Below are positions 4,911-55,174 of a stretch of 64,000 bases of DNA, piece by piece. The position numbers and the translations under genes are program-made. The notes below the pieces were generated by a model. The model searched no databases. It had not been told where the DNA came from and saw nothing but the letters and a program-made list of their open reading frames with translations. Within the stretch, counting starts at the first letter, position 1, and each line of letters starts with the position of its first letter. Source of the DNA: a bacterium HR15 (GTDB lineage: Bacteria; Armatimonadota; Fimbriimonadia; Fimbriimonadales; GBS-DC); the NCBI GenBank assembly GCA_002898555.1, contig BEHR01000001.1:1-64000 (forward strand). Direction: 5' to 3'.

Positions 4911-4914
4911 AAAA

Positions 4915-25704: not shown

Positions 25705-25739
25705 AAGCGCACCTCCAAATATTCCTTCGCCATGCAAGC
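25603..25739. repeat. 137-bp direct repeat, left copy (5' part of the regulator gene)
   Basis: Nearly identical (about 4 differences noted) to 32565-32701 and in the same orientation. Together they bound a 6.8-kb segment. Confidence 0.9.
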
Positions 25740-25791
25740 CGCCTCTTCCTGCTGAGCCAAAAGTCGGAGAAAAAAAATCACCCTTTTGGAC

Positions 25792-29001: not shown

Positions 29002-29379
29002 GCATCCGTTGGGTGTGCCGGCGATAGGGGAGAATGAGTTTGTATGGAGCGGAGGTAGCCCGGCAACGCTGGTCATTCCTGCGCGGGCATTAGGGTATAC
29101 TTGGGGCTGGGAACCTGACCTGAGCTGGATAGCGGAGGAGACGGTGTTTCGCGTAGAGCCTGAGATACCGAGCGACGATACGAAGCCGGGGGAGCGCACG
29201 GTGGCGCGTGGGCGCGAACTGGTGGCACAGAGTTTAGAGGGGCAGACCGGGGGGTATGTGGATGATTTGCTCTATCGGAGTAAACATCTGCCGCCGCACA
29301 ACAGCGATTTTGGCAAGAAGCGGGTTGTGTTTGAGGTGGAGGACAAGGTGGACTATGCAGAGATAGAGGTGTTTTATCC
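29002..29379 (+). repeat. 378-bp duplicated segment, copy 2
   Basis: Copy of 26732-27109. It begins 25 nt after the stop of the preceding gene, with no start codon or ribosome site of its own. Confidence 0.92.
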
Positions 29380-32558: not shown

Positions 32559-32666
32559 CGGGACGCTCTCAGCCACCTCGATTTCCTCGCAGCTGCTTAG
32601 CCGCTGTTCTAAAAAGGCTTTCAGCAGGGGGTCGCGCGTCACAATCACCACTTTTCGCTTCGACAT
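32553..32666 (-). pseudogene. 5' fragment of the LuxR-type regulator
   Basis: Encodes MSKRKVVIVTRDPLLKAFLE and ~18 further residues almost identical to the gene at 25,375 and then runs out at VPL; the helix-turn-helix is missing. Confidence 0.85.
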
Positions 32667-32701
32667 AAGCGCACCTCGAAATATTCCTTCGCCATGCAAG
32701 C
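32565..32701. repeat. 137-bp direct repeat, right copy
   Basis: Counterpart of 25603-25739, same orientation. Confidence 0.9.
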
Positions 32702-32751
32702 AGCTCTCCACAGCGTGCGCATGGAGGTATACTCCAAAGTGGGTAAGCCAC

Positions 32752-34082: not shown

Positions 34083-35141
34083 ATGCGTACCTTAGAACAC
34101 TTTAGGGATGGCACGATGAGTGCCCTGAAGAAAGGATGCGTTCGCGTTCTGAGTGTCGCGTTGTTGTATGCTGGACTGTCTCTGCCCAGCCACGCCCAAA
34201 TCTGGGGCGTCAAAGCACCTGATACTGCGTGGTACACCCCGCGACGCTGGTTGCTTTTCTGGTTCCATGAGGATGGTTCCGGGATTACCTTCGTGGGCGA
34301 TATACAGGGAGCGACTAAGATAGACGGGCTTGCCCTGTCGCCCCAGCACGGGCTGCTGGCGTTTCAGAACGACGGGGATCTGTATCAGTTCAGGGGCAAC
34401 AACTCGCGTTTGGTGCGGATTGACCCAGCGACGGCTCAGGTGACTGTGATTGGCAGTTGGCTTGCTGGGCGTTCCATTCACGGCGCCGCATTTGACCTAC
34501 AAGGTCGTTTGTGGGCAGTGGATGTGCTTCAAGGCGAGTTGCTGCAGATTGACCCGACGAATGGCAATATCATTACAAGCGTACCGCTCAGTTATCAAGG
34601 CAATCGGATCTATCCATCCGTTGCCACAGATATCGCCTTTGACCGCGATGGCGTCGCCTACTTGTGCGATTACATTCCTTCGCCGCCTTATGGGGTGAAA
34701 TATTATCGGGTTGATATGCAGACGGGTGTGCTGACCTTGTTGCACACGGATACACAGGCGGTGCCAGGAGGTTTAGGACCAGGAGTCGTCGGGTTGGCAT
34801 TTTCGTTGCGTGCGCCTGCGGATCGGCTGTTCATATTCGACGGTAACGGCGACGATGATATCTGGTATTATGATATGAACAGTGGCTGGCCGCGCGTTTA
34901 CATGTATGATGTATTGAGCGATAGCTACAATGGCGGCCCTGGTGACTTAGCCAGCGTCATGCAGTGCGCTTCTGCGGACGGCGATGTGGATAACGACGGC
35001 TGCGTGGACGATGCCGACCTGTTGCAGGTTCTATTCGCGTTTGGGGCTTCGGGTCCTAATGACGCGGATGTGAGCTGCGATGGTGTGGTGAATGATGCCG
35101 ACCTCCTGATTGTGCTGTTCCACTTTGGCAACGGTTGTTGA
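34083..35141 (+). CDS. Secreted beta-propeller-like protein with dockerin-like tail
   Basis: 352 residues. Signal peptide (VLSVALLYAGLSLPSHAQ). Mature part reads like an NHL/SMP-30-type propeller: LVRIDPATAQVTVIG, IHGAAFDLQGRLWAVD, LLQIDPTNGNIITSVP, DIAFDRDGVAYLCD. C-terminus: GDVDNDGCVDDADLLQVLF and SCDGVVNDADLLIVLFHFGNGC, two calcium-loop repeats ending in Cys. AGGAGGTG upstream of the ATG. Probably extracellular. Confidence 0.8.
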   Translation: MRTLEHFRDGTMSALKKGCVRVLSVALLYAGLSLPSHAQIWGVKAPDTAWYTPRRWLLFWFHEDGSGITFVGDIQGATKIDGLALSPQHGLLAFQNDGDLYQFRGNNSRLVRIDPATAQVTVIGSWLAGRSIHGAAFDLQGRLWAVDVLQGELLQIDPTNGNIITSVPLSYQGNRIYPSVATDIAFDRDGVAYLCDYIPSPPYGVKYYRVDMQTGVLTLLHTDTQAVPGGLGPGVVGLAFSLRAPADRLFIFDGNGDDDIWYYDMNSGWPRVYMYDVLSDSYNGGPGDLASVMQCASADGDVDNDGCVDDADLLQVLFAFGASGPNDADVSCDGVVNDADLLIVLFHFGNGC

Positions 35142-35262
35142 GGTTGGTGTTTGTATCGGTGCGGGGGCGGGCACTGCGCTCGTCCCTGCACGGGGTGAGG
35201 TGGCGGATACTTAATCAGTTTCCCCCACCTCCTTCGGAGCATTGGGGTACAATCTTCGTACT

Positions 35263-35496
35263 ATGAGGCGCGAGGAGTTGCTGGCGCGTATCACGGTGGA
35301 TCCGAACATCTGTTTTGGGAAGCCGTGTATTCGGGGACATCGGATATGGGTTTCGCTCATACTGGACTTGCTGGCGAGTGGGATGAGCGTTGAAGATCTC
35401 TTGCGCGAATATCCCCAACTGGAAGAAGCGGATATCCGCGCCTGCATTGCGTACGGTGCCGAAATGGTTCGTGAACGAATCGTGGCAGTGGGCTGA
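35263..35496 (+). CDS. DUF433 family antitoxin-like protein
   Basis: 77 residues. ITVDPNICFGKPCIRGHRIWVSLIL is the DUF433 signature and ASGMSVEDLLREYPQLEEADIRACI its helical part. DUF433 proteins are commonly encoded just before DUF5615 proteins and are regarded as antitoxin-like DNA-binding partners. The next gene starts 1-3 bp after the stop. No experimental evidence for activity here. Confidence 0.85.
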   Translation: MRREELLARITVDPNICFGKPCIRGHRIWVSLILDLLASGMSVEDLLREYPQLEEADIRACIAYGAEMVRERIVAVG

Positions 35497-35499
35497 GTG

Positions 35500-35874
35500 A
35501 TGCGCATCAAATTGGATGAGAATCTTGGCGAAAGCATCGCACAGATGTTCCGCGTTGCTGGGCATGAAGTGGAGACCGTAGCCTCTGAAAACCTCTGGGG
35601 CATTCCTGACCGTGATCTTATCTCTGTGTGCCAACGGGAGGAACGCTGCTTAGTGACTTTGGATATGGATTTTGCAAATCCGTTAGTGTTCAGACCATCG
35701 GACTATTTCGGGATTGCCGTATTGCGCTTACCTGCTCAGGCAACTTTGGAGGACATCAAGGCTCTGGTGCAAACGCTCATTGATGGGCTTTCTCAAGCAC
35801 CGATTAAGGGCAATCTGTGGATTGTGCAAAAGAAGCGCATCCGGGTATATCAGCCAGAGCCTGAGTCACCCTAA
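35500..35874 (+). CDS. DUF5615 PIN-like toxin partner
   Basis: 124 residues. IKLDENLGESIAQMFRVAGHEVETV, then VTLDMDFANPLVF, with the acidic residues (D in KLDENL and TLDMDF) of the PIN-like family. Expected to be an RNase-type toxin by family analogy. A GTG at 35497 gives one additional residue. Co-transcribed with the DUF433 gene. Positioned convergent to leuS. Confidence 0.85.
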   Translation: MRIKLDENLGESIAQMFRVAGHEVETVASENLWGIPDRDLISVCQREERCLVTLDMDFANPLVFRPSDYFGIAVLRLPAQATLEDIKALVQTLIDGLSQAPIKGNLWIVQKKRIRVYQPEPESP

Positions 35875-35981
35875 CATTCTCCTCGTCGCACAGAGTCGTA
35901 CTTCTACCCTTGAGCGTGATGAGGGACTGCAAAACGCTCTTAGGTTTCCTCTAACCATTCAGTTATGCGAAGATTCTATTC

Positions 35982-38636
35982 TCACACCACCACATTTACC
36001 AACTTGCCCGGCACGACGATTACTTTGCGCGGGGTTTTGCCCTGCAGGTGCGCCTGCACGCGCGGGCTTGCCAACGCCAAGCGCTCCATCGCCTCGCGCG
36101 AGATGTCCGCAGGCACTGTTATCTTGTCTCGAACCTTGCCGTTTACCTGCACCACCATTTCGAACATCTCGGCGCGGGCGAGGTTCTCGTCGTAGTCAGG
36201 GAAGCGCTGCTGCAAAGTGAAGCCTTCAAAGCCGAATGCCTCCCACAACTCGTCGGCGATGTGCGGCGCGAAGGGCGACAGCGCCACGATGAAACACTCC
36301 ACCGCCTCGCTGACCACCGCCATACAGTCCGCACAGCACATCCCTGTGTTCGCCTTGCGCCAATAGTCTTCCAAGTCGTTGAGCCATTCTATCAGCGTGG
36401 CGACCGCCGTGTTGAACTTGAAGTCGGGGATGTCGCTGTGCAGTTTCTTCAGGCTGGCGTGGGTGCGCTGACGCATCTGGCGCGAGGCGTCGTCGAGCCG
36501 TGCATGCGTTTCAGGGGTCAATATTTCGCGCCAGTCCCGAAGGAAGCATGCCCGCACCTCACGCATCAGTCGCCAGAGACGATTTAGGAAGCGGTGCATC
36601 CCTTTCACGCCCTGCTCCTCCCATTGGATAGCGGTATCGAAGGGGGCGACGAACATCTCATATAGGCGCAGCGTGTCCGCGCTATACCGCTCCACAATCT
36701 CGTCGGGTGTGACGACATTGTATTTGGATTTAGACATCTTTTCCCAGACCCAGATCAGCTGCTCGCGTTCGGCTTCGCTCATCTGCTCCAGTTGGTCGCG
36801 GCGTACCAAGATGCCGATCTCGCCTGCACTCAGGATCTCGTCTTCGCGGGGCGGGCGATAGGGCGTCAGCGCCAGCACCATCCCCTGATTGCGCAGGCGA
36901 TAGAACGGTTCCTGCACTGGCGAGATCCCGGCATCATAGGCGACCTTTGTCCAAAAGCGGGCATAGAGCAGGTGCATCACCGCATGCTCTGCACCACCGA
37001 CATAGTAGTCCACCGGCATCCAGTAGCGCACTTTTTCCTGGCTGAACGGCTCCTTGTCGTTGTGTGGGTCGCAAAAGCGGAAGAAGTACCAGCTGCTGCA
37101 GGCGAAGCCGCCCATCGTGTCGGTTTCGCGTCTGGCAGGCTGTCCGCACTGGGGGCAAGAGGTATTCACGAACTCTGGAATGCGGGCAAGGGGCGACTCG
37201 CCGGTGCCCGACGGCTGATACTGCTCCACATCGGGCAGCAGCACGGGCAGCTGTTCTTCGGGCACGGGCACTTCGCCGCAATGCTCGCAGTACACTATCG
37301 GGATTGGTGCGCCCCAGTAGCGTTGACGGCTGATTAGCCAATCGCGCAGGCGATACTGCACCTTGCGCTGTCCGATGCCACGCGCCTCGAACCAGTCGGC
37401 GAGCCGTTCCATCCCCTCGCGGTTCGGCAGCCCGCTGAACTCACCGGAGTTGACCATGATGCCATCGCCTGTGTAGCAGGGAGGGATGCCCTCACCTCCT
37501 GACCCCCCCTGCCACGCTGCGGGAGCGGGGGAAGCTCCTTCGGGCACGATAACCACTTTAATCGGCAGCCCATATTTCAGGGCAAAATCGTAGTCGCGTT
37601 CGTCGTGGGCGGGCACTGCCATAATCGCGCCCGTGCCGTAGGTCATCAGCACATAGTCGGCGACATAGATGGGTACGGGTTCGCCGTTCACGGGGTTGAT
37701 GGCGTACGCGCCGGTGAAGACGCCTGTGCGCTCGCGTTCTGCCGCCAGACGCGTGCGCTCGTCCAGGCGACGCGCTGCCTCGCGATAGGCGTTGATCTCA
37801 TGGCGATGCTCAGGCGTGGTTATTTCATCCACCAGCGGATGTTCGGGCGCCAGCACGGCGAAGGTCATGCCGAACACGGTGTCGATGCGCGTGGTGAAGA
37901 CGCGGAACTTCAGGTCGGGGTGTCCCTGGATCTGCATTTCGAACTCCACGCCTTCGCTGCGCCCGATCCAGTGGCGTTGCATCTGTTTGATGCCTTCGGG
38001 CCAATCCAGCGCGTCGAGGTCATAGAGCAGGCGGTCGGCATATTCGGTAATCTTGAAGAACCACTGGGGCATTTCGCGTTTCTCGACGAGTGTGGCGCAT
38101 CGCCAGCACTTGCCCCCCTCTACCTCCTCGTTCGCCAGCACCGTCTTACAGGATGGACACCAGTTGACGAGGGCGTTCGCCCGATAGGCTAACCCTCGCT
38201 TATAAAGCAGCAGGAACCACCACTGCGTCCAGCGATAATATTCGGGCGTGCTGGAGTTGATTTCGCGCTCCCAATCATAGGACAGCCCGATGAGATTCAT
38301 CTGCCGCTTGTAATTGGCGATATAGCGGGGAACGGTGTATTTGGGATGCAAACCTTTGTTGATGGCTTCATTCTCAGCGGGTTGTCCGAAGGCGTCCCAG
38401 CCCATCGGGTGCAGCACATTGTAGCCGCGCATGCGCATATAGCGGGCGAGCGTGTCGGCGGGGATGTAGTTGCGGCAGTGTCCCACACTCAGCCCGTCGC
38501 CTGAGGGATAGGGGAAGAATTCCAGCACATAGCACTTGGGCTTGCTGGGATCTTCCTCGGTCCGAAAAAGTTTTGCCTCACGCCACCGCTGCTGCCACTT
38601 CGGTTCGATTTGTTTGGGCTCGTAGTGTTCCTGCAT
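35982..38636 (-). CDS. leuS: Leucyl-tRNA synthetase
   Basis: 884 residues. Class I synthetase charging tRNA-Leu. Contains YPSGDGLSVGHCRNYIPAD (HIGH box variant), the zinc-type ALVNWCPSC...CWRC, editing-domain TRIDTVFGMTF and GTGAIMAVPAHDERDYDFA, and KMSKSKYN. An unusual insertion EGASPAPAAWQGGSGGEG in the region before YTGDGIMVNSG is encoded by a palindromic repeat like that in fliO. The start is near-leaderless: TACAAT ends 10 bp before the ATG. The first ~26 codons plus promoter recur upstream twice. Confidence 0.97.
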   Translation of the reverse strand: MQEHYEPKQIEPKWQQRWREAKLFRTEEDPSKPKCYVLEFFPYPSGDGLSVGHCRNYIPADTLARYMRMRGYNVLHPMGWDAFGQPAENEAINKGLHPKYTVPRYIANYKRQMNLIGLSYDWEREINSSTPEYYRWTQWWFLLLYKRGLAYRANALVNWCPSCKTVLANEEVEGGKCWRCATLVEKREMPQWFFKITEYADRLLYDLDALDWPEGIKQMQRHWIGRSEGVEFEMQIQGHPDLKFRVFTTRIDTVFGMTFAVLAPEHPLVDEITTPEHRHEINAYREAARRLDERTRLAAERERTGVFTGAYAINPVNGEPVPIYVADYVLMTYGTGAIMAVPAHDERDYDFALKYGLPIKVVIVPEGASPAPAAWQGGSGGEGIPPCYTGDGIMVNSGEFSGLPNREGMERLADWFEARGIGQRKVQYRLRDWLISRQRYWGAPIPIVYCEHCGEVPVPEEQLPVLLPDVEQYQPSGTGESPLARIPEFVNTSCPQCGQPARRETDTMGGFACSSWYFFRFCDPHNDKEPFSQEKVRYWMPVDYYVGGAEHAVMHLLYARFWTKVAYDAGISPVQEPFYRLRNQGMVLALTPYRPPREDEILSAGEIGILVRRDQLEQMSEAEREQLIWVWEKMSKSKYNVVTPDEIVERYSADTLRLYEMFVAPFDTAIQWEEQGVKGMHRFLNRLWRLMREVRACFLRDWREILTPETHARLDDASRQMRQRTHASLKKLHSDIPDFKFNTAVATLIEWLNDLEDYWRKANTGMCCADCMAVVSEAVECFIVALSPFAPHIADELWEAFGFEGFTLQQRFPDYDENLARAEMFEMVVQVNGKVRDKITVPADISREAMERLALASPRVQAHLQGKTPRKVIVVPGKLVNVVV
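37487..37531 (-). repeat. Palindromic repeat element inside leuS
   Basis: On the minus strand: C-run, GCTCCCGCAGCGTGGCAG, G-run, TCAGGAGGTGAGGGCAT. Same architecture as the elements in fliO (5299) and near 45650. It is translated in frame. Confidence 0.6.
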
Positions 38637-38658
38637 AGCGGGGAATATTGTACCATGC
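38561..38658 (-). repeat. leuS promoter/5' copy A (native)
   Basis: 98 bp covering the -10 box (38647-38652), the ATG (38634-38636) and the first ~25 codons. Copies B and C below are nearly identical. Confidence 0.9.
38647..38652 (-). promoter_or_regulatory. leuS -10 box (TACAAT), near-leaderless start
   Basis: TACAAT on the minus strand ends 10 nt before the ATG, so the transcript should begin a few bases ahead of the start codon. The box is conserved in both duplicated copies. Confidence 0.5.
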
Positions 38659-38725
38659 GCACCCGCAAGTGCGTCGGGGCTACACCGTCATCAACGCTCA
38701 TGCTACCAGCCCATCAGAAGCGCGT

Positions 38726-39547
38726 TCATACTCGTTCATCCTCCGCCATAGACTTTAGCTGCTTCAAGGTGACCCGCCAATCGTAGTACTGCTTCTCACT
38801 TGTTTGGAGCAGTTCCAGAGCCAGTTTCTCAACAAGTAGCGGATACTGTGGAGAAAATACAACGAAACCGTTATCAAGCCAACGCTGTAGCTTGCTGGAG
38901 CAGAAGTAGAAGAGTTCTGCCTTCTCACGAGTATGAGCCGTTCTGGAATGGAACATACTGTGGTACCAATCCTTCGCGGATCTCAAAGTGTAAGGAATTT
39001 CTAGGCTCAAACGACCTGCATGCTGTTGGGCAAAGCGTCTCCGAAGTCGTGATTCGCTCCTATAGGTCTCCTTCTTTATTTGGATAATAACTTGTTGCCC
39101 GTTCAGGTTGACTAATGCGTCCACGCCTTGAATGTCGAGTTCTGGGGATGCTTCCAGAGGCGATTTGCAGTAAGACTTCCATAAATAGCAAAAGTGAAGC
39201 TGCGTCCAGACAGAAACGATTGTACGATAGATACGAGCTTTGAAACCTAAGTAAACAAAATCGCGTGAGCAACCCCAAAAGAATTTTGCAATAAATTCGT
39301 CTAGAGGCTCCAGATGGCTTTTCCACCACTCGCTGAAAAGTTCTTCATATCCAGGAAATTGAGCATCTTCTTCAGTCCAGTAGTGTTTGTATATATCCGG
39401 CAATGGATTTAGGCGCCTTGGTAAATCTTGCTCTACCGTCTTAATCGACATAAGCTCTTGCCTGTACTTTTCGATAGGAACTTCCGATAAAAATCGCTCG
39501 AAGTCCATAGCTTTCCGATATGCATGTGAGTTTTTGGGGCGAATCAT
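38726..39547 (-). CDS. TaqI-type type II restriction endonuclease (predicted TCGA)
   Basis: 273 residues, the size of TaqI (263). Similar features: YRQELMSIKTVEQDLPRRLNPLPD near the N-terminus and the catalytic PD-(D/E)XK-like core LDIQGVDALVNLNGQQVIIQIKKE (D138, D143, K158/K159). Together with the adjacent M.TaqI homologue it predicts cleavage at T^CGA; this follows from homology, not from the sequence alone. Starts with ATGA overlap after the methyltransferase. Confidence 0.88.
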   Translation of the reverse strand: MIRPKNSHAYRKAMDFERFLSEVPIEKYRQELMSIKTVEQDLPRRLNPLPDIYKHYWTEEDAQFPGYEELFSEWWKSHLEPLDEFIAKFFWGCSRDFVYLGFKARIYRTIVSVWTQLHFCYLWKSYCKSPLEASPELDIQGVDALVNLNGQQVIIQIKKETYRSESRLRRRFAQQHAGRLSLEIPYTLRSAKDWYHSMFHSRTAHTREKAELFYFCSSKLQRWLDNGFVVFSPQYPLLVEKLALELLQTSEKQYYDWRVTLKQLKSMAEDERV

Positions 39548-40902
39548 ATTAATCCTCCTCCAAACAGGTTTGTTCTGGAGTCTAAAAATACTCCTGATGG
39601 CACAGGAACGACTTCAAGCATTGCCTTGGTCAAATGAGGCGTAAAGTCTCGATACACTGCTTGTAGGTACTCCTGTATCCGCTCACTGTTCAGGTATCTT
39701 TCCAAAGCGAGCCAGTCAACCCGAACACCTTCCAAAGGTAGCAGGTGGTATTCCTCGCGCCAGGGATAGCACTGCCAATCTACCGCACATACTAAGCGAG
39801 TACCCTTAGTATGTCCCACTACAAGGTGCGGAACACCGTAAAATGAACGCAGATTCGGAGCATCTTCACGACGCATCCACCAGCCACTGTAGCAAGTCTC
39901 ATAGTCTATGTGTCCAGCTGATAAATTGCGCCCTGTCAGTACGGGCACATCGCCTGCTTGAGGCGCGGTGCGAATCAATCCGCTTTTACGAAACTCAGGA
40001 CTCCGCGCTGCGAAGCGGATATGCATGAGTTTTCCCAGAGGAACGCCTGATTCTTCAAAAGCGGTCCACTCGTTCGTCGCGAATCGTATAAGCCCTCCAA
40101 AGTAGTTTGGATCTTTCACATGCAGATGCCTGTGAATGAGCGAATCGCCGGTGCACGATTCCCAAGTGCCTCCCGACATATCGTATAGTGATAAACCGCG
40201 ATCATTGAGGGTGAATCGTAGGATGACCACTGAAACATTCACTTTAGGAAAAACTCTACCGACATAGAATACCTCAAGTCGCCCCCGTTCCGCAAGAAAT
40301 CGTCGCAGTAAGGCGAAATCATCCAAGATTAGCCATGTAGTAGGTACAACGAATACCAACCTACCGCCCGGACGCAGAAGGAGCACTGCTTTTTCAATGA
40401 ACGCTCCGTACAGATTGTATTTACCTTTCCAAGTAGTGAAGGACTGCTTGTATTCTGCTTTGCGTTCTTTCAGAAGATGTATTGGGTAATGTGAAGCATC
40501 TCCTACAATTCCGTAAGGTGGATTTCCAATCACAATATCGAATCTTTCATGGGTGTTCCACAGTAGGAAGTCCGCATGAATTAACTGAATGTAGTCTGGC
40601 AATGTATGCTTGGCCCAGGCAATAGTTGCCTCATTGATTTCAACGCCCACCAAGTGATGATAGGTTCCATAGTGTCGAGCGAAGCTGCTGAGGAATCGCG
40701 CGTCACCACACGCCGGCTCAAGCACTTTAGAAGGTTCTTGTCCTTCTGGCTTCGCAAGCTGTACCATGAAGTCCACCAGCGCTGCTGGAGTTGAAACGAA
40801 TCCGAGTGCTCGCTGGATATCCGAAGTTGTAAGCTGCAGGTCCGACGCTTCGTGTGCAATTAGTTCAAGCTGATTAGGCTCCAAAAATTGTAGGCGATTC
40901 AT
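39544..40902 (-). CDS. TaqI-type N6-adenine DNA methyltransferase (predicted TCGA)
   Basis: 452 residues. Motif I LEPACGDARFL (61-71), acceptor motif IV GNPPYGIVGDASHYPIH (NPPY 127-130), WKGKYNLYGAFIEKAV, FVVPTTWLILDDFALL and C-terminal target-recognition HIRFAARSPEF, VPVLTGRNL, YPWREEYHLLPLEGVR, all strikingly like M.TaqI. It protects TCGA by methylating the adenine. ATG 40902 lies 5 nt after the stop of the leuS-derived leader ORF (copy B); AAGAG may be a weak ribosome site. Confidence 0.93.
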   Translation of the reverse strand: MNRLQFLEPNQLELIAHEASDLQLTTSDIQRALGFVSTPAALVDFMVQLAKPEGQEPSKVLEPACGDARFLSSFARHYGTYHHLVGVEINEATIAWAKHTLPDYIQLIHADFLLWNTHERFDIVIGNPPYGIVGDASHYPIHLLKERKAEYKQSFTTWKGKYNLYGAFIEKAVLLLRPGGRLVFVVPTTWLILDDFALLRRFLAERGRLEVFYVGRVFPKVNVSVVILRFTLNDRGLSLYDMSGGTWESCTGDSLIHRHLHVKDPNYFGGLIRFATNEWTAFEESGVPLGKLMHIRFAARSPEFRKSGLIRTAPQAGDVPVLTGRNLSAGHIDYETCYSGWWMRREDAPNLRSFYGVPHLVVGHTKGTRLVCAVDWQCYPWREEYHLLPLEGVRVDWLALERYLNSERIQEYLQAVYRDFTPHLTKAMLEVVPVPSGVFLDSRTNLFGGGLI

Positions 40903-40907
40903 CTCTT

Positions 40908-41099
40908 CTACACCCCCATCAACTCCTCCTTGAGATACCGTTCGTGTTGCTGCTGCGGCAGGGTGCGCCAGATGAGGAACTGCTTGCACAGGATATTCAA
41001 GAAGCGGTGATTGACGCGCTCTGTCCGAAAAAGTTTTGCCTCACGCCACCGCTGCTGCCACTTGGGTTCAATTTGTTTGGGTTCGTAGTGTTCCTGCAT
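40908..41099 (-). CDS. leuS-derived leader ORF (copy B), truncated LeuRS N-terminus
   Basis: 63 residues: the first ~26 match LeuRS (MQEHYEPKQIEPKWQQRW), then the frame continues as unrelated sequence (RVNHRFLNILCKQ; LPQQQHERYLKEE) and stops at 40908, 5 nt before the methyltransferase ATG. Unlikely to be functional as a synthetase; likely a translated leader. Confidence 0.6.
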   Translation of the reverse strand: MQEHYEPKQIEPKWQQRWREAKLFRTERVNHRFLNILCKQFLIWRTLPQQQHERYLKEELMGV

Positions 41100-41121
41100 A
41101 GCGGGGAATATTGTACCATGC
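41024..41121 (-). repeat. leuS promoter/5' copy B
   Basis: 98 bp; contains the -10 box at 41110-41115 and ATG at 41097-41099. It abuts the stop codon of the second methyltransferase and precedes the TaqI-type cassette. Confidence 0.92.
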
Positions 41122-42896
41122 TACGGTTTTTGGAGGAGCAGAGCGGTCTCATAGTAGGCGTCGAGGGAACGCGGGCGTGCAACCGAGTTCTGTTTGTGCA
41201 GTTCCACATGAATGGGTTCGACTAACTGTAGTTTGGCTTGTTGGGCAAGTTGAGCAGTAATATCGGCGCTTTCGACAACGCGTACGATTTCGCGGGAGCG
41301 ATAGCGGTAGAACACATGGCGTCGAGCCACAACATAAGCACATTTGCCGCCTGGTTTCAGGACGCGCTGGATTTCGCGCAGCGATTCGCGGAGGTCGGCG
41401 AAATAGCTGGCAGTGGCGGCGGCTTTAACGCAGCGTGTGGGATCGTTCTGCATCCACATCACGACTTCCTGTGCAAGTGGAGGCAGGTCAGCAATTGTAT
41501 CAGCGCGTTGTACGGAGCCGATTTGCCCGGCTTCAAGCGTGTCTACAGCGTCGGGCGTAATCAAGCCAAGAGCGATCATCGCATAGGCTTTGCTTTTGAG
41601 GTAGCTTTCTCGCCCTGACGAAGCGGGCATGTAAGGTGGACTGGTTACGACGCATTCCACGCTTGCGTCCTTCAGGGGCAGTTGGCGGGCGTCTCCTTGC
41701 AATACGGTGATGGGCGCAGGCACGACGCCTGTGTGCGCGCGGAGCCACTGCCAAGCAGTTATCGCGCATGAGAGGTACTGCAGATTCTCGAGAAACATCT
41801 GGCGCACACTGCGCGGCTGAATGGTGAGGGAAAATCTTCCGTAGCCCAATCCCAGAAAACGGAATTTGAACTTGCGTGAAAGGGCGTCGCTAAGAGCGAT
41901 GTGCAGCGGGCTGCACGGGGGAAGCCAACGCAGGGCGCTTAAAATATTGGCGACATCGGTCTCTACCTCGCGTAATATCGGTTCAGGCAAGCGATGGCGT
42001 ATAAATGCAGGTGTTAGGTTGTACGATGCTGGCGTTTCAGCTATCTCGAACAGACTGCCTTGCCCCTTTTCGGAAGCGTCCAAGCGTGTTAGTACAGTGG
42101 CGACAGCGTCTGCAATAGCGCCTGTGTCTGACAAAAGTTGCGCTTTCGCCCTCGCAATTGCAACCGAGAGCGGGTCGATATCGACGCCTATGGCAGGCAG
42201 CCCCATCACCGCGGCTTCCACCAGCGCCGTTCCACTGCCTGCGAAGGGATCCAGCACTGTTGCCCCGCCACAGAGGTTCAAGAATGCGCGCGCCATTCTT
42301 GGAAAAAACTTTGCCTTATACACATGCAGCCCGTGAAAGAGATGTCCGGTGGTCTGCTTCGCTTGCAGAAGAGTGCGTGCGCTTTGGGGGAGTTCACTGG
42401 GAACCTCGGCAACAATTGCTGCCCGAAGATACTCCAGCGTAGCGCCCACCTCTTTGGGAGCCTTTGCCCGCCGCGCAATTACATCAGACCACTCCGCCAT
42501 CGCATTGAAGGGTACAAACATAAATGCAAGCCTCTGATTCACTTGACGCACACGCACTAAGGAGCTTGGCAGCAGCGCGAGCGCGCTTCGTGCAGCAACA
42601 TCATCCTCCACGATGCCGAACACCTGTTCGCAAAACGAAAGTCGCCAAAAGAGTCTGAGCAAGTCTACAGACTCGGCTTGACCCAGATAGCCCACTACAC
42701 CTTGCCGATGAAGTGCAATATCTTTGGGCAGCAACCATCCCGCTTGCTGCCAGGAGTAAAGAAATTCAGCCCCGCGCGGTTCGAGAGTACACTGAATTAA
42801 GGCAATCAGCTCTCGCCTTGCGAGGTCTAAATCGCCATCCAGCTCGATATTGTTGCGCAACTTAAAAAAAAGCGTCCAGCGGGCGTTGGAAATCAT
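41121..42896 (-). CDS. DNA amino-methyltransferase of the second R-M system
   Basis: 591 residues. Motif I VLDPFAGSGTALVEAAV (216-223 core) precedes the catalytic motif IV ECVVTSPPYMPASSGRESY (TSPPY 418-422), so the order is FGG before SPPY. This order and the long N-terminal region are unlike the TaqI-type enzyme. The base (N4-C or N6-A) cannot be decided, nor the site. The ATG overlaps the endonuclease ORF's stop by ATGA; the gene ends exactly at copy B. Confidence 0.85.
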   Translation of the reverse strand: MISNARWTLFFKLRNNIELDGDLDLARRELIALIQCTLEPRGAEFLYSWQQAGWLLPKDIALHRQGVVGYLGQAESVDLLRLFWRLSFCEQVFGIVEDDVAARSALALLPSSLVRVRQVNQRLAFMFVPFNAMAEWSDVIARRAKAPKEVGATLEYLRAAIVAEVPSELPQSARTLLQAKQTTGHLFHGLHVYKAKFFPRMARAFLNLCGGATVLDPFAGSGTALVEAAVMGLPAIGVDIDPLSVAIARAKAQLLSDTGAIADAVATVLTRLDASEKGQGSLFEIAETPASYNLTPAFIRHRLPEPILREVETDVANILSALRWLPPCSPLHIALSDALSRKFKFRFLGLGYGRFSLTIQPRSVRQMFLENLQYLSCAITAWQWLRAHTGVVPAPITVLQGDARQLPLKDASVECVVTSPPYMPASSGRESYLKSKAYAMIALGLITPDAVDTLEAGQIGSVQRADTIADLPPLAQEVVMWMQNDPTRCVKAAATASYFADLRESLREIQRVLKPGGKCAYVVARRHVFYRYRSREIVRVVESADITAQLAQQAKLQLVEPIHVELHKQNSVARPRSLDAYYETALLLQKP

Positions 42897-43639
42897 CGTC
42901 GCCTACCTCCTAAGGCTGAATAAAGCCGCTCCAGGCTGAAAGCGCGCTTTAGCGTCTCACATCGGATCCACGATTTGGTCAAGGAAAACAACATATCATA
43001 GAAGGGCGACAAATCGCTCGCGCGAACGCGCCTCCACTCTGGGTCGGATTGGTCTTCAGCGAGCTTGGCTTCGTGTGTCCACAAGGCGTCTTCAAAGCCC
43101 TCAAGATATTGGGTGTAGTGAACGACGGGATGAATGTTAGAGAGCAGAGCCACGCGGATACGCCCCTGGGCACATCGCGTCCGATATTCCTCCGTGAGCT
43201 TGAGTGATTGATAAAGACCTTTTTTGATATCGTCTGTTCGATCTAACCCTGGAGCGTCTTTTGAGTCGTCAACTCCACTGCCACAGCCAAAGGTAAACCA
43301 GCGGAGATGTCCTTCCTTGCTCCAGCGGCTTTCGTAACCCACGAACATCTGTCTCCAGACCTCGATCACTGCCTTTATATCTTCTATCATTTGGTCTTGT
43401 TTCCTGCCGAGCAATGACGGGATCAGAGAAACCCTGCCGTTGCGAACAGTAGCATGCAGCGGGAAAGTTTTACCACTACCAAGCAGATAGAGGTGCAGAG
43501 GTTGTGTTTTCCATGTAGGCACATCGGTCGCTTTGTGGGTAATAACCTCCTGTGGTTCTCCATCTACCTCTGTGGTGAGAGGTTCCTCATAAAAACACAT
43601 ATCGGAAATGCCGTGAGTGGGGATGCCTTCAGTTCGCAT
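42893..43639 (-). CDS. C-terminal fragment of the second restriction endonuclease (frameshifted)
   Basis: Open frame for the C-terminal part (EEPLTTEVDGEPQEVITHKATDVP, then QPLHLYLLGSG...). It overlaps the N-terminal fragment by ~75 bp in another frame. The first codons up to ~43590 are an out-of-frame continuation of the other fragment; the true product would join at the A5/T5 run at 43591-43595. Its stop overlaps the methyltransferase ATG. Function as nuclease C-domain is inference. Confidence 0.6.
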   Translation of the reverse strand: MRTEGIPTHGISDMCFYEEPLTTEVDGEPQEVITHKATDVPTWKTQPLHLYLLGSGKTFPLHATVRNGRVSLIPSLLGRKQDQMIEDIKAVIEVWRQMFVGYESRWSKEGHLRWFTFGCGSGVDDSKDAPGLDRTDDIKKGLYQSLKLTEEYRTRCAQGRIRVALLSNIHPVVHYTQYLEGFEDALWTHEAKLAEDQSDPEWRRVRASDLSPFYDMLFSLTKSWIRCETLKRAFSLERLYSALGGRRR

Positions 43640-44184
43640 AGGACAGCATGTTCGGCATTGAACAGTATCATATCAATCTCGCCGCGTCCAGACGCCAAAA
43701 GACGAACATTCCACCCTGTGCGGGTTCGCTGACAAAGCTCTGCTAAAATTGCAGCCAGACAGAGGGATGCGTACCTGCCGATGCTATCTGAGGCAGGTTT
43801 ATGTGCCACAGTAGGCAAATCGTCTGTCCGCCCACAGCGTGGGCAGCTCCGCATATAAGGGTAGAAACTCGCTATAGGCTCCTGTGGGCAATACAGCCAC
43901 TGAGTGTGGGTACATCTCTCTGCGTACAAGAGGCTCATACAGAGGTCAAAAACCGCGCCTAACGCGATGCCCAGCGCTTCGGGACTCGGGATTGTCTGGC
44001 GCTGCACTAAGACCTTTAGACAGTCGAAGATTCTGGATACAAGCAGAGTGAGGTCAGGTCTGAGCGCTTCGGCAGAGGTGGATGCCTCATGAATGCGCCT
44101 TAGCTCAGGAGCAACCAAGCAGCCACACTCCCCTGAAAAACATATAGGGAGTGAGTTCGGCTGCATACGAGGAACCTGTTTCAT
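43564..44184 (-). CDS. N-terminal fragment of the second restriction endonuclease (frameshifted)
   Basis: Starts at ATG 44184, whose bases overlap the TGA of the leuS leader ORF (ATGA). Carries CPQEP...SCPRCG (a zinc-ribbon-like Cys set) and the nuclease core GRGEIDMILFN...AVLCELKASPL (E-I-D ... E-x-K), a PD-(D/E)XK signature common in type II enzymes. After ASPLTAFPICVF the frame leads to a stop, while the other frame continues with EEPLTTEVDG; one extra base at the T5 run would restore it. Confidence 0.65.
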   Translation of the reverse strand: MKQVPRMQPNSLPICFSGECGCLVAPELRRIHEASTSAEALRPDLTLLVSRIFDCLKVLVQRQTIPSPEALGIALGAVFDLCMSLLYAERCTHTQWLYCPQEPIASFYPYMRSCPRCGRTDDLPTVAHKPASDSIGRYASLCLAAILAELCQRTRTGWNVRLLASGRGEIDMILFNAEHAVLCELKASPLTAFPICVFMRNLSPQR

Positions 44185-44258
44185 TGAAATCTGCACCTTG
44201 CTTGCCACCGCTGCTGCCACTTGGGTTCAATTTGTTTGGGTTCGTAGTGTTCCTGCAT
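44181..44258 (-). CDS. leuS-derived leader ORF (copy C)
   Basis: 25 codons: MQEHYEPKQIEPKWQQRW followed by QARCRFQ and TGA. The TGA overlaps the ATG of the endonuclease gene (ATGA), a typical arrangement for translational coupling. Confidence 0.65.
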   Translation of the reverse strand: MQEHYEPKQIEPKWQQRWQARCRFQ

Positions 44259-44276
44259 AGCGGGAATATTGTACCA
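44204..44276 (-). repeat. leuS promoter/5' copy C
   Basis: 73 bp, nearly identical to copies A and B (closer to B), with one base lost in the G-run. -10 box at 44268-44273, ATG at 44256-44258. Confidence 0.92.
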
Positions 44277-44296
44277 CAACGCCCGAGAAAGCTTCG

Positions 44297-45454
44297 CTAA
44301 CCCATTCTCAGCAGCACCTGCGCCGCAAGCATTTGCCAAAAGCGCGTCCGCTTTTTCATTTCGTCTGTGGAGTGACGATGATGCTCTTTGTACCAGCACC
44401 AGTCTCCCAAACGCCGCGGGTCATTCTTGTCCATTTCTGCCCAAGTGCCCCAGCGGTCTCGGGGAAGTGAGTAATATAACTCCTCGAGTTGTTCAGCGAT
44501 TCGCCGGATGTGTGGTCTAACATGATAATGTAACTCCTCGAGTAGTTCAGCGATTTGCCGGGTGATTCGTCTAAAATGATAAAGGTAGTACCAAAACTCG
44601 CCGTAAGACTCGAAATACCGTTCGCTTCCACCAATCGGCGGCCATGCGTAGAGTCGATTGGCCAACAGGTAGCCTTGGTACTCCGCTGGCTGGGTAGTGA
44701 TAAGCCGTTGCACATGGCGCGCCTCGATGCCGCTGAACTGCGAAAAGGCGATAAAGTTCGCGAAGCTCTCTTCGATCACGCGCCCCCACGCGGTATCGTA
44801 CACAGACTCACTGGGTGCATCCTCCGTGTCCATATAGGCGTGTCCCAGCTCGTGGTAGAGGACTTTGTCGAAGACGAGGTTCGGCTCCACACCCATGCGG
44901 TTTGCCCAGTCTATCACGCGCTCTGGGCAGATGAAGATGAGCGGCGTGTTCGCTGACCGATAGGCATCAACGGCGTCAGGTGCGGGTTGCGGTGTTCCCT
45001 GTGAGTTTATTTTAGACCACTGAGGTTTCGCGCTATGCCGCCCCAAATAAAGCCCAACGGGTGTAAATCGTATCCAGTAGGCGAAGGGGCTTGGCTCCTG
45101 CATGTCTGTAACCTCACCGCGCTGGATATCATCCCAAGCGCGCTCTATGGGGCTGATTTCTTCTTCTCTGCGGCGTTCGCGGTCGCGTTGCACCTCTTCC
45201 TGCTCCAGCGCGTCACGCAGTCGGCGTTGGACTGCGTTTTTGTTCAATCCGCGTTGCAGGGCAGGTGGGGCAACAGCGTCGATTTGCGCTTCGTTCACCA
45301 GAAACACGGGGATTTTCAGCGCCAGTTCCGCAATGCGGTCTTCCATGCGGGTATAGAGCGCTTCACGCGCGAGGTCTATCTGCTGCGCGGCGGCGGAGCC
45401 AAGGTTGTGAAACGCTATCGGTAGCGAACCCTTAATCTGTTTGCGTCGTGCCAT
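44297..45454 (-). CDS. HExxH metallopeptidase-like protein with tandem helical duplication
   Basis: 385 residues from ATG 45454 (AGGAGA upstream). HELGH at 201-205 (VLYHELGHAYMDTE) and, 23 residues on, VIEESFANF, a gluzincin-like E-E-x-x-A; this is a plausible zinc site. A long acidic/basic coiled region precedes it, and a ~60-bp duplication encodes RQIAELLEELHYH / RRIAEQLEELYYS near the C-terminus. No signal peptide. Substrate unknown. Its 3' end lies near copy C. Confidence 0.7.
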   Translation of the reverse strand: MARRKQIKGSLPIAFHNLGSAAAQQIDLAREALYTRMEDRIAELALKIPVFLVNEAQIDAVAPPALQRGLNKNAVQRRLRDALEQEEVQRDRERRREEEISPIERAWDDIQRGEVTDMQEPSPFAYWIRFTPVGLYLGRHSAKPQWSKINSQGTPQPAPDAVDAYRSANTPLIFICPERVIDWANRMGVEPNLVFDKVLYHELGHAYMDTEDAPSESVYDTAWGRVIEESFANFIAFSQFSGIEARHVQRLITTQPAEYQGYLLANRLYAWPPIGGSERYFESYGEFWYYLYHFRRITRQIAELLEELHYHVRPHIRRIAEQLEELYYSLPRDRWGTWAEMDKNDPRRLGDWCWYKEHHRHSTDEMKKRTRFWQMLAAQVLLRMG

Positions 45455-45729
45455 CGTTGACTCTCCTCTGCTCAGTGAACGGAGTATACCCAGAAGTGTT
45501 GGCAAAAGTCAAGAGGGTTTGAGGCTGTTCGAAAATTCACGCGGCTCGCTGGAGGGCGAGGCTCCCGCCGAGCCGTTAAAGAATATTGGCAGAGGTTTTT
45601 TGGGACAGGCACGGAGGTCTACCCCTACACGCCAGTAGGCTCGCCCTCCACTCCCCTCGCCCTCTGGGAGAGGGGCTGGGGGTGAGGGTTCGGCTCGCCA
45701 GGAGGCTCGCCCTCCAAATGCTTGGTGGA

Positions 45730-45765
45730 TTTTTCGAACACCCTCCACCTCCCTTGACAAATGCC
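45730..45765. repeat. 36-bp inverted repeat, left copy
   Basis: TTTTTCGAACACCCTCC...CTTGACAAATGCC; matches the reverse complement of 63771-63806 at about 33 of 36 positions. Confidence 0.8.
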
Positions 45766-45783
45766 CTCTCGATGTGCTATAAT
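45754..45783 (+). promoter_or_regulatory. Consensus promoter at the head of the surface-protein cluster
   Basis: TTGACA, 18-bp spacer ending in GATGTGC, TATAAT, then AGAG. Best promoter match in the window. Confidence 0.75.
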
Positions 45784-46012
45784 AGAGTCGGTGTTGGGGA
45801 GAAACTTGCCTTGACCGCCCGAATCCCCAACAAAATGGGTTATAATAGGGTGTAGGAACGGGAAATCTCCCTTGCCCTTTTGACAAACATTGTTGAGAGG
45901 AAACAGGGGAAAACTCCCTGAACCCTAAAAAGTCGCGGAAGAGAAACGAGCATCCGGGGAATCTGACTGCCCGTCTACCAATCAGCTTGCTTGGGCAAGG
46001 GGGATGAACCGT

Positions 46013-48899: not shown

Positions 48900-50534
48900 T
48901 TGAGTAGCGACCAAGCGGTGTGGGGGCTGGCGTATCGGAGCTACAGTCAGGATGATTCCTACTGGCTGGCGCGTGGACGCGGGCTGACCCGTCCGTCGGT
49001 CGCCTCGAATGTGGTGGGCGAAGGATGGCAGGTTGCCCTGCCCGAAGCAGCGAGCGCGATTGCCCGCGACCCTGCCAATCCCGACCTGTTCTATGTGGGC
49101 TGTTTGGACGGCTCGGTGCAACAAGTGTTGCTGCCCGACTTCACACCGATGGTGTTGATGGGGCATGCGGGGCTCAGCGGCACGCTGTTTGAAGTAGTGC
49201 AGAACCGCATCGCGACCTTTTTGACGAGCTATGGACCGGCGTTTCGCTGGTTCTATGATAGCGGCGTGGGTATTCGGCGTGCCGCGGTTGTGAACTTGAG
49301 CAACGGGCAAGTGGCGTCCAGCGCGATCCAGTGTAATGCGGATGGGTCCACAGGGTGCAATCCGTATGATGTGGGTATCAACGCGCTGATGCGTTTGTCG
49401 CCCTCGGGGAATGTGCTGTACGGCTATGAGGTGGGGAACAATCGCCTCACAGGCTGGAACGGCACGACGATGGCGCCGCTGTTCAACACCACGAGTTTCG
49501 GCTTGCACTGGTGGCCGGTCGGGTTGGATGATACACGCGTGGCGTTGCTGTATAACGAGGCGCGTGGCTCGTATCAGTTGGGGAGCCCGCCCGTGACCTA
49601 CTATCGGTATCGTCCTGTGATACGAGTCATCAAGTGGACGCCGACGCTGACGACGGAGGCGGTGCGTCCGCTGGATGAGAACACCGAGATGGGGTTCATT
49701 ATGCAGGATCCCAACCAGCATCCGAACTATCTTCAGGGGATGCGTTGGGATATGAACGCGACGCGTCGGGTAGCGGCGGTTTATGGAGCGCACTTTTACG
49801 ACCCGAACACGCCGAACGCCTATGAGCGGCGCATCTTGATTTTGCATCGCCCGAACCCGAATGATTGGAGCACTTGGGTGGTGCGCGAGGTGCTGCGTCA
49901 GGGCGTCGATTTTCCAGGTCTGGTCTATCCCACTATGGTCGTTTTTCACCCAAATGCGCCTGGGGTGCTGTATGTGGGCTTGAGCAACGGGCGGTTGCGG
50001 ATTTATCGTTTAGACGCGAACGGCAACTTGCTCAATCGGACGAACCCCGACGAGTTAGTGCCGACGCTGGGCACTTTAGGTCCTGTGTCGGCGATGGATG
50101 TGGGCAACTATGTGCTGAACGGGCTGAACTACACGGCGATTGTGTTTGGCGGTCCGGAGGGCTTATCGGTCTGGGTGGGCTTTGTGTGCCAGCCGGGCTG
50201 GCTGAACGAGGTGCATTTTTACAAGACCGATATTGCCTTTTTCCCGTCGGCAGGGATGGGGTATGTGCAAGTGGAGCAGCCCGATCCGAGCCAGCCGCCG
50301 TTTCTGGTGTACAGTAATGGGCTGGTGATGTCGGCGGCGCGCTTGGACAACCTGCCTGAGTTGCCCTGTCCGGAGGATGTGAACCGAGATGGTGTGGTCG
50401 ACGACGCGGATGTTTTGGAGGTGCTGTTTGCGTTTGGCGGGGAGGGGTATCGCCCTGCTGATGTGAACTGCGACGGTGTCGTGGACGATGCGGACCTGTT
50501 GCAGGTGCTGTTTGCCTTTGGGCAGCAGTGTTAG
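48900..50534 (+). CDS. C-terminal fragment of the interrupted giant propeller protein with dockerin-like tail
   Basis: 544 residues starting at a TTG inside the former reading frame. Propeller-like (RLSPSGNVLYGYEVG; GNGRL...). The C-terminus carries the dockerin-like pair VNRDGVVDDADVLEVLF and VNCDGVVDDADLLQVLFAFGQQC. Together with the N-terminal and middle fragments it would be about 1,210 residues, close to the paralogue at 50,611. Confidence 0.75.
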   Translation: MSSDQAVWGLAYRSYSQDDSYWLARGRGLTRPSVASNVVGEGWQVALPEAASAIARDPANPDLFYVGCLDGSVQQVLLPDFTPMVLMGHAGLSGTLFEVVQNRIATFLTSYGPAFRWFYDSGVGIRRAAVVNLSNGQVASSAIQCNADGSTGCNPYDVGINALMRLSPSGNVLYGYEVGNNRLTGWNGTTMAPLFNTTSFGLHWWPVGLDDTRVALLYNEARGSYQLGSPPVTYYRYRPVIRVIKWTPTLTTEAVRPLDENTEMGFIMQDPNQHPNYLQGMRWDMNATRRVAAVYGAHFYDPNTPNAYERRILILHRPNPNDWSTWVVREVLRQGVDFPGLVYPTMVVFHPNAPGVLYVGLSNGRLRIYRLDANGNLLNRTNPDELVPTLGTLGPVSAMDVGNYVLNGLNYTAIVFGGPEGLSVWVGFVCQPGWLNEVHFYKTDIAFFPSAGMGYVQVEQPDPSQPPFLVYSNGLVMSAARLDNLPELPCPEDVNRDGVVDDADVLEVLFAFGGEGYRPADVNCDGVVDDADLLQVLFAFGQQC

Positions 50535-53962: not shown

Positions 53963-55174
53963 ATGCGACGTGACATTTATCAGCGCGTGTGGATGAAGGG
54001 CGTTATTGGACTGCTGACGCTTTTGAGCGTGGCGAGCAGTTGGTCTCAGTGGCAGGTGATCAACCTGCATCCTTCGGGCTGGCAATCCTCGGAGGCGAAC
54101 GCGATAGAAAACGGCGTGGCAGCAGGCGGTGGCACCTTAGCTGATGGAAGCCAGAGCGCCGTGTTATGGACGAGCTTGAACGCGAGCAGCGCAAGCCTGT
54201 TGAACCAGTCTACGGCTGGCTCGTGGGGCTGGGCGATGTCGAGCGGCGTGGTGGTGGGTCCTGCGTGGAACGGCACGGTTCACGCCGCGGCTTGGAGCGG
54301 TGGCGCGTTCTATGACCTGAACCCGCCTTTTACAGCGTGGTCCAATGCGTTTGCCGTCAAGCATGTAGGTGCTAATCCTGTGACGGTCGGGATAGCATTG
54401 CATGGGAGTGTATTTCATGCGACCGCATGGCAGGGCTACAACGCCAACAGCCCGATAGACTTGCACCCGAGCGGCGCGGGGCAATCGTTCGCCTACGGGA
54501 TTAATAGCAACGGCGCCGTCGTGGGCATAGTGGATGGGCAAGCAGCGTACTGGGGCAACTATAACAATCCTGCCAGCTATGTTAACCTGCATCCTTCTGG
54601 GATGGCGGCTTCGTATGCGCTGGGAATCGCGGAGAATGGGCAGGTTGGCGGCTTTGTGGTAGCGAATGGACAGGAACGCGCCTGCGTTTGGGATCCCAGC
54701 ACTGGCAGCTGGACGGATATTCATCCCACAACGGCAACTGGCGATTCCGAAGTGTTGGGCATTGGCTCCATGCCTGGGGCTGCGTCAGCGGTGGCCGTCG
54801 GGTTCGCCGTGTTCAATGGGGAGCAGCACGCGGTCGTCTGGCGTTGTCTGGATGGCGGCTCAGGCTGGGTGGATTTGCATACCGTGTTGCCGCCGGGCTA
54901 TACGCTGTCGTGGGCGCGCGGCGTCTGGAGTGCTCCCGACGGCACGCTCTATGTCTCGGGTGCGGCGGGAGACGCGAACCATTCGGAAGCGATGGTTTGG
55001 GTACTGACGCCGGGCGATGTCAACGGCGACGGGTGCATCGATGATGCGGACCTGCTGTCCGTCTTGTTCGATTTTGGCAATTCGGGGTGCAGCCTGACGG
55101 ATGTGAACGGTGATGGCGTGGTCGATGACGCCGACCTGCTTATCATCCTGTTCGGATTTGGCAACGGCTGTTAG
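53963..55174 (+). CDS. Secreted HAF-like repeat protein with dockerin-like tail
   Basis: 403 residues; ATG 53963 with GGAGG. Signal peptide (IGLLTLLSVASSWSQ). Repeats such as GQSFAYGINSNGAVVG and AASYALGIAENGQVGG, relatives of HAF repeats. Ends DVNGDGCIDDADLLSVLFDFG...VNGDGVVDDADLLIILFGFGNGC. Extracellular; function unknown. Confidence 0.85.
   Translation: MRRDIYQRVWMKGVIGLLTLLSVASSWSQWQVINLHPSGWQSSEANAIENGVAAGGGTLADGSQSAVLWTSLNASSASLLNQSTAGSWGWAMSSGVVVGPAWNGTVHAAAWSGGAFYDLNPPFTAWSNAFAVKHVGANPVTVGIALHGSVFHATAWQGYNANSPIDLHPSGAGQSFAYGINSNGAVVGIVDGQAAYWGNYNNPASYVNLHPSGMAASYALGIAENGQVGGFVVANGQERACVWDPSTGSWTDIHPTTATGDSEVLGIGSMPGAASAVAVGFAVFNGEQHAVVWRCLDGGSGWVDLHTVLPPGYTLSWARGVWSAPDGTLYVSGAAGDANHSEAMVWVLTPGDVNGDGCIDDADLLSVLFDFGNSGCSLTDVNGDGVVDDADLLIILFGFGNGC

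What the first reader, a model, noticed from the sequence alone, without database searches (positions are those of the whole stretch)
40908..44258. Truncated leuS leader ORFs may couple translation to the R-M genes
In copy C the LeuRS-derived 25-codon ORF ends with a TGA that overlaps the endonuclease ATG (ATGA). In copy B the ORF ends 5 nt before the methyltransferase ATG. Both keep the leuS near-leaderless start. Ribosomes loaded by the leuS start could hand over to the R-M genes, tying R-M expression to leuS-type initiation.
Basis: partly seen in the sequence, partly recalled or inferred. Interest (0 to 1): 0.7.

Follow-up and report, generated by a model that had tools for sequence, protein, structure and literature searches.

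The report
Defence genes stacked behind leuS starts
Two DNA-cutting defence systems have been inserted one after the other at the start of an essential gene (leuS), each leaving behind a short copy of that gene's promoter and first codons, which probably drives the defence genes; the proposed ribosome hand-over is plausible for one of the two systems and not needed for the other.

Summary
Behind each of two truncated leuS copies (B, C) sits a Type II R-M operon: a TaqI-type M-R pair (38726-40902) and an unrelated R-M pair (41121-44184). Both leader ORFs are chimeras. C is 18 leuS codons plus 7 from the R-M side, ending in ATGA at the endonuclease start. B is 26 leuS codons plus the last 37 codons of a permease gene, ending 5 nt before the methylase ATG.

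Best explanation: insertion of R-M units at the 5' end of leuS with long target duplication (about 74 and 103 nt), a known kind of R-M mobility. A relative (G011, KatS3mg016) has the same C anatomy and is the empty site for the TaqI insertion. A third genome (G004) carries the second R-M pair with 104 leuS codons attached, away from its own leuS. Copies track their host's leuS (10 sites group by genome, 0 by copy), suggesting gene conversion.

Coupling: the methylase behind B has a strong ribosome site of its own, so the claim fails there. The endonuclease behind C has only a weak one, and 3 of 6 homologues away from leuS have a near-leaderless promoter there; a leuS'-driven start is plausible but untested, and that endonuclease is frameshifted here.

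The parts
35982..38636 (-). leuS, intact, 884 aa; its start is copy A
   Evidence: TIGR00396 score 1053.6; ORF
38556..38658 (-). copy A: leuS core promoter (TGGTACAAT) and first codons, the repeat unit
   Evidence: direct repeat family D4; genome match list
38726..39547 (-). TaqI-type restriction endonuclease, 273 aa, own strong SD (-11.7)
   Evidence: PF09573 2.9e-61; SD
39544..40902 (-). TaqI-type adenine methyltransferase, 452 aa; own strong SD GGGGGTG (-12.3); its stop overlaps the endonuclease ATG by 4 nt
   Evidence: M.TaqI 2ibs 1.9e-138; TaqI_C domain; SD
40908..41018 (-). permease remnant: last 37 codons of an ABC-permease-like gene, in frame with the leuS' start
   Evidence: tblastn in the correct frame: 73-81% aa identity in six genomes of the family; blastn to the end of G000:C63 86% over 73 nt
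41019..41121 (-). copy B: leuS promoter and 26 codons (103-nt repeat, 96% to A)
40908..41099 (-). leader ORF B, 63 codons (26 leuS + 37 permease), stop 5 nt before the methylase ATG
41121..42896 (-). second methyltransferase (M2), 591 aa, strong SD (-11.6); stop codon abuts copy B
   Evidence: PADLOC MTase_II 7.1e-23
42893..43639 (-). second endonuclease (R2), C-terminal part, in another frame
   Evidence: PADLOC PDLC03413 positions 281-425; 86% to G011
43564..44184 (-). second endonuclease (R2), N-terminal part; one-base frameshift in a short T run relative to the intact G011 homologue
   Evidence: PADLOC PDLC03413 positions 75-208
44181..44258 (-). leader ORF C, 25 codons (18 leuS + 7), TGA overlapping the R2 ATG
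44204..44276 (-). copy C: leuS promoter and 18 codons
   Evidence: 95% to copy A; aligned with the other copies
44297..45505 (-). upstream flanking gene, weakly metallopeptidase-like (DUF4344, below cut-off); a homologous gene sits in front of copy C in G011

Best explanation
Two Type II R-M units entered the 5' end of leuS in succession, each by insertion with long target duplication. First R2-M2 entered (about 74 nt of leuS duplicated, shared with the relative G011); later the TaqI-type M-R pair entered with a piece of the permease gene that had lain before it (about 103 nt duplicated, G000 only). Each insertion left an intact leuS downstream and, upstream of the R-M genes, a stub with the leuS core promoter, its near-leaderless ATG and 18 or 26 codons. 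Inferred: the stubs promote the R-M operons, so these are transcribed from copies of a housekeeping promoter. Inferred, and likely only behind copy C: ribosomes that start at the leuS' ATG end at the overlapping TGA and restart on the R2 ATG. The methylase behind copy B recruits ribosomes itself.
For: Repeats that bracket each R-M unit and start at the -10 element. G011 is the empty site for the TaqI unit: its M2 stop is followed directly by the leuS promoter, with the same bases (CCGTAGCATGGTACAAT) as at M2/copy B in G000. G011 repeats the C anatomy: same junctions, same 3159-nt unit length and a homologous gene upstream. G004 carries R2-M2 followed by 104 leuS codons away from its own leuS; that fragment is nearer to leuS of G010 and G016 (4-fold sites 36/44 and 37/44 the same) than to G004's own leuS (23/42). 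The permease piece before the TaqI methylase shows that this unit came from another place. SD strengths: methylase behind B -12.3, TaqI endonuclease -11.7, M2 -11.6, R2 -6.3. Passages of two papers state that R-M systems can insert with long, variable target duplications, of the order of 100 bp (PMC3874152; PMC3031569).
Against: No empty site for the R2-M2 insertion was found: no relative examined has the upstream flanking gene next to a single leuS. Copies B and C agree with each other at 3 sites where A differs, which a simple order of events does not predict without later exchange. No -35 consensus and no scan hit at the leuS copies, and -10-like motifs near starts are only modestly enriched in this genome (11 of 146 genes against 5 of 146 controls), so promoter activity is inferred. 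The chance of the ATGA phase is 1 in 3. R2 is frameshifted in G000, so any coupling serves a gene that may make no active enzyme here.
Confidence: 0.77

Rival explanations
1. The leader ORFs were kept because they couple translation: both R-M operons depend on ribosomes loaded at the leuS-type start.
For: ATGA at C and a 5-nt gap at B; ATGA kept in G011; R2 has only a weak SD. In other R-M systems the leaderless C gene overlaps the R gene, and coupling is reported for Esp1396I (passages of PMC2997769).
Against: The methylase behind B has a strong SD at good spacing. In the similar PvuII case stop codons placed in the upstream gene had no detectable effect (PMC2997769). Junction phases are 1 in 3 each. 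The leuS part is held in frame anyway if it is converted from leuS.
Confidence: 0.2
2. Inert scars: the stubs are leftovers without a role, and the R-M genes are read from upstream or internal promoters by their own ribosome sites.
For: Strong SDs before three of the four R-M genes; long target duplications need no function; no promoter consensus at the stubs.
Against: The scan found no other promoter in front of either operon on this strand apart from one upstream of the flanking gene at 45512-45483. The stubs retain the -10 and ATG in two genomes.
Confidence: 0.25
3. The stubs are homology arms: R-M circles or fragments carrying a leuS 5' piece integrate into and leave leuS by ordinary homologous recombination, so the R-M unit moves without its own recombinase.
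For: An R2-M2 plus leuS fragment of foreign type sits in G004. Copies group by genome, 10 sites against 0. The predicted unit is 3159 bp in both genomes.
Against: The G004 copy lies among CRISPR-like repeats, not at leuS. Gene conversion alone explains the site pattern. No circle has been seen.
Confidence: 0.25
4. Independent insertions of R2-M2 at the same leuS position in G000 and G011, rather than one insertion followed by gene conversion.
For: Each copy C matches its own genome's leuS.
Against: Both junctions fall at the same base and a homologous gene lies upstream in both genomes; leuS places G000 with G011 (support 87/91).
Confidence: 0.12

Closest known systems
R-M insertion with long target duplication (Nobusato et al. 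2000; Furuta et al. 2010; both known here only through citing papers)
   Same: An R-M unit flanked by direct repeats of the order of 100 bp of target DNA, no recombinase gene, repeat length variable, target gene left whole on one side.
   Different: Two successive insertions at one target; the repeated piece is an essential gene's near-leaderless promoter and start, which places that start in front of each R-M operon; copies appear homogenised with leuS.
C-protein R-M operons with a leaderless C gene overlapping the endonuclease gene (PvuII, Esp1396I; passages of PMC2997769 and PMC4824078)
   Same: A short ORF started near the 5' end of the transcript, its stop overlapping or next to the endonuclease start.
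   Different: The short ORF here is a stub of leuS, not a DNA-binding regulator, so no feedback control is implied.
TaqI R-M system
   Same: Same endonuclease family (PF09573) and methylase family (M.TaqI).
   Different: Sits behind a leuS stub and a permease remnant.
Termination-reinitiation at ATGA overlaps (abstract and two further passages of PMC6728339)
   Same: ATGA overlap at copy C, between R2 and M2, and between the TaqI methylase and endonuclease.
   Different: The upstream ORF at C is a gene remnant rather than a functional partner gene.

Membership tests
R-M insertion with long target duplication | R-M unit bracketed by direct repeats of about 100 bp | tested here: met
   103 nt (96%) around the TaqI pair; 73-74 nt around R2-M2
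[quoted passage not shown]
   G011 has the M2 stop followed directly by the leuS promoter
R-M insertion with long target duplication | empty site for the R2-M2 insertion | tested here: inconclusive
   28 of 30 leuS loci examined show no repeat of the leuS start upstream; G011 shows the 74-nt copy and L046 a weak 20-nt match. None has the flanking gene beside a single leuS. Upstream sequence was short in several
R-M insertion with long target duplication | no transposase or integrase in the insert | tested here: met
   Only R-M genes and remnants between the repeats
C-protein-type leader gene | leader ORF encodes a helix-turn-helix regulator | tested here: not met
   Leader B has no Pfam match and is leuS plus permease; leader C was not scanned, its translation is leuS codons plus 7
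C-protein-type leader gene | translation of the endonuclease depends on the leader | not testable with these tools
   needs reporters or ribosome profiling
TaqI R-M system | RE_TaqI endonuclease domain over the curated cut-off | tested here: met
   207.2 bits, cut-off 26.1
TaqI R-M system | M.TaqI-like methylase with the TaqI specificity domain | tested here: met
   2ibs 1.9e-138, PF12950 6.3e-17
TaqI R-M system | recognises TCGA | not testable with these tools
   TCGA is only mildly scarce on this contig: 840 against 973 expected, which does not decide it

The most novel reading that the evidence does not exclude
The leuS stub is a working part of a mobile R-M unit: it serves both as homology arm, by which host recombination carries the unit into and out of the leuS start of related cells without a recombinase, and as a ready-made near-leaderless promoter and start that drives the endonuclease by reinitiation. 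Gene conversion keeps it matched to each new host's leuS, so restriction is set by the host's own leucyl-tRNA synthetase promoter.
Probability: 0.15. Interest if true: 0.75.

Novelty: new variant of a known kind. Interest (0 to 1): 0.45.

Why it matters
Insertion with long target duplication is usually read as a scar of R-M mobility. Here the duplicated piece is a minimal promoter and start codon of an essential gene, so the same event that inserts the R-M genes may also supply their expression while sparing the target. It suggests why a near-leaderless gene start, whose control fits into some 20 bp, is a tolerant landing place, and it gives a testable case of an upstream ORF made by insertion.

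Tried and rejected
One search covered the permease remnant in the wrong reading frame; its hits were still the right gene because the DNA is conserved, and one search repeated the comparison in the leuS frame. Direct repeats were sought around nine R2-M2 relatives away from leuS (L091-L099): no long repeat flanking the R-M genes was found, only internal or short weak ones. RNA folding of the leaders gave no clear masking of the R2 start. Rfam found nothing in 35000-46000, so no T-box or riboswitch match at leuS. The scan of genome contigs with M2 found only the G011 and G004 records. No solved structure matched the TaqI-type endonuclease or R2. Plasmid records hold only distant methylases. In the test of R2 starts 6 loci away from leuS were read; L091, L093, L098 and L099 were dropped because R2 was partial or absent there. 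In one search a 20-nt match in L046 was not counted as a leuS stub. Paper searches showed in their listings no paper on leuS stubs before R-M genes; only the PMC library was searched, and Furuta 2010 is not held.
Full report
What is there. On the - strand, in order of transcription: a flanking gene (44297-45505); leuS copy C; endonuclease R2 in two frames (43564-44184 and 42893-43639); methyltransferase M2 (41121-42896); leuS copy B; a TaqI-type methylase (39544-40902) and endonuclease (38726-39547); and intact leuS, 884 aa, starting at 38636 as copy A. The TaqI pair is clear: PF09573 at 2.9e-61 and M.TaqI at 1.9e-138. R2 and M2 match PADLOC Type II models; the two R2 ORFs match successive parts of one model, and G011 has the gene in one frame, so R2 is frameshifted here by one base in a short T run. 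Whether this is a mutation or an assembly error cannot be told.

The copies. The repeat starts at the -10 element, (T)GGTACAAT, and runs into leuS: 18 codons in C, 26 in B. The whole genome has only these three. There are 9-10 nt between -10 and ATG, so a transcript would start some 3-5 nt before the ATG (inference from usual promoter geometry). Upstream of the repeat the three copies differ, so a shared -35 is absent, and the promoter scan finds none. Across 146 genes of contig C1 such a -10 close to a start is seen in 11 (5 of 146 in internal controls), an SD motif in 53 (11 in controls): near-leaderless starts look like a minority habit here, with weak statistical support.

The leader ORFs are chimeras. 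C: MQEHYEPKQIEPKWQQRW from leuS, then QARCRFQ, stop TGA inside ATGA of R2. B: 26 leuS codons, then 37 codons that match the C-terminus of a 538-aa ABC-permease-like protein in six genomes of the family (73-81% identity; the permease name is by eye, no family scan was run) and the end of contig C63 of the same genome (86% over 73 nt). So the TaqI unit arrived with the 3' end of a gene that had stood before it, and the stop-to-start spacing before the methylase belongs to that gene, not to leuS.

Relatives. It lacks the TaqI unit and so shows the empty site for it. Its leuS and flanking gene show frameshifts, perhaps assembly errors. Nine further loci (in G003, G004, G007, G008, G013, G123, G128, G142, G153) carry M2 relatives at E of 1e-97 or better, and none of the nine stretches read has leuS in it. 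Of 30 leuS loci read upstream, G011 alone shows a clear stub; L046 has a weak 20-nt match; upstream sequence was short in several. TaqI-type endonucleases occur in 9 of 201 genomes searched, G000 included; in the 7 of the 8 other genomes whose loci were read (L100-L106) no leuS lies beside them.

Copies follow their host. In 55 coding nt shared by copies A and C in both genomes, 10 sites group by genome and none by copy. Since junctions and upstream gene are shared, one insertion followed by exchange between stub and leuS is the simplest reading; independent insertions at the same base are the rival. B and C of G000 are identical in these 55 nt and differ from A at 3. R2-M2 and the flanking gene are somewhat more alike between G000 and G011 (4-fold sites 70-78% the same) than leuS (64%) or the permease (56%), so recombination of the block between lineages is possible. 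The leuS tree joins G000 with G011 at 87/91, short of the star; the M2 tree joins them at 100/100 with G004's leuS-linked copy next (99/98).

Coupling. SD energies with the standard anti-SD: TaqI methylase -12.3, TaqI endonuclease -11.7, M2 -11.6, R2 -6.3, leuS A and B -2.9, leuS C -4.1; ATGs in general mean -3.6, sd 3.1 (1500 of 3163 ATGs sampled, one strand). The methylase behind B therefore needs no leader. R2 is the only R-M gene here without a strong site. Of 6 R2 homologues read away from leuS, 3 (L044, L092, L094) have GGTA(C/A)AAT 8-10 nt before a likely start, 2 have a moderate SD (L095, L097) and 1 neither (L096). So in some relatives R2 seems to be near-leaderless itself, and at leuS it stands behind a borrowed near-leaderless start with an ATGA overlap. 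That favours a role of leader C, but each junction had a 1 in 3 chance of the phase seen, folding shows no strong masking, and R2 is broken in this genome.

Known precedents. Passages of PMC3874152 and PMC3031569 state that R-M systems insert with long, variable target duplications. Passages of PMC2997769 report leaderless C-gene transcripts, C/R overlaps, coupling in Esp1396I and its absence in PvuII; passages of PMC4824078 say that leaderless transcripts are common for C genes. The abstract and two further passages of PMC6728339 treat ATGA overlaps and reinitiation.

Verdict. The sequence observation is right. The underlying event is R-M insertion at the leuS start with long target duplication, twice. 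Promoter capture is likely, coupling plausible at C and unneeded at B.

Noticed in passing
L044 3539-7543 (G004:C16:101538-105542): The R2-M2 plus leuS fragment lies between CRISPR-like 36-37-nt repeats; the leuS fragment ends where a repeat begins. The repeat occurs 8 times on this contig in four pairs, with 1.3 to 3.9 kb of other DNA between pairs.
   Followed up: partly
window 42893-44184: Endonuclease R2 is split by a one-base frameshift in a short T run; an intact homologue exists in G011.
   Followed up: partly
window 26762-27094 and 29032-29364: Identical stretch of about 330 nt shared by two neighbouring genes (25860-27944 and 29009-30157), suggesting recent exchange or partial duplication.
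   Followed up: partly
window 25603-25742 and 32565-32704: A 140-nt repeat (96%) between genes, 7 kb apart, containing what looks like the start of a reading frame on the other strand.
   Followed up: no
window 34978-35140, 50371-50533, 55011-55173, 58679-58847, 61012-61174, 62287-62452: Paired 67-75-nt repeats at the ends of many genes, with the look of a repeated calcium-binding (dockerin-like) C-terminal domain (the name is a guess from recall).
   Followed up: no
L095 about 4860-4993 (G007): An R2 homologue starts 4 nt after the stop of what looks like an ABC transporter ATPase gene, another case of an R-M operon placed directly behind a gene's stop (gene name by eye).
   Followed up: no
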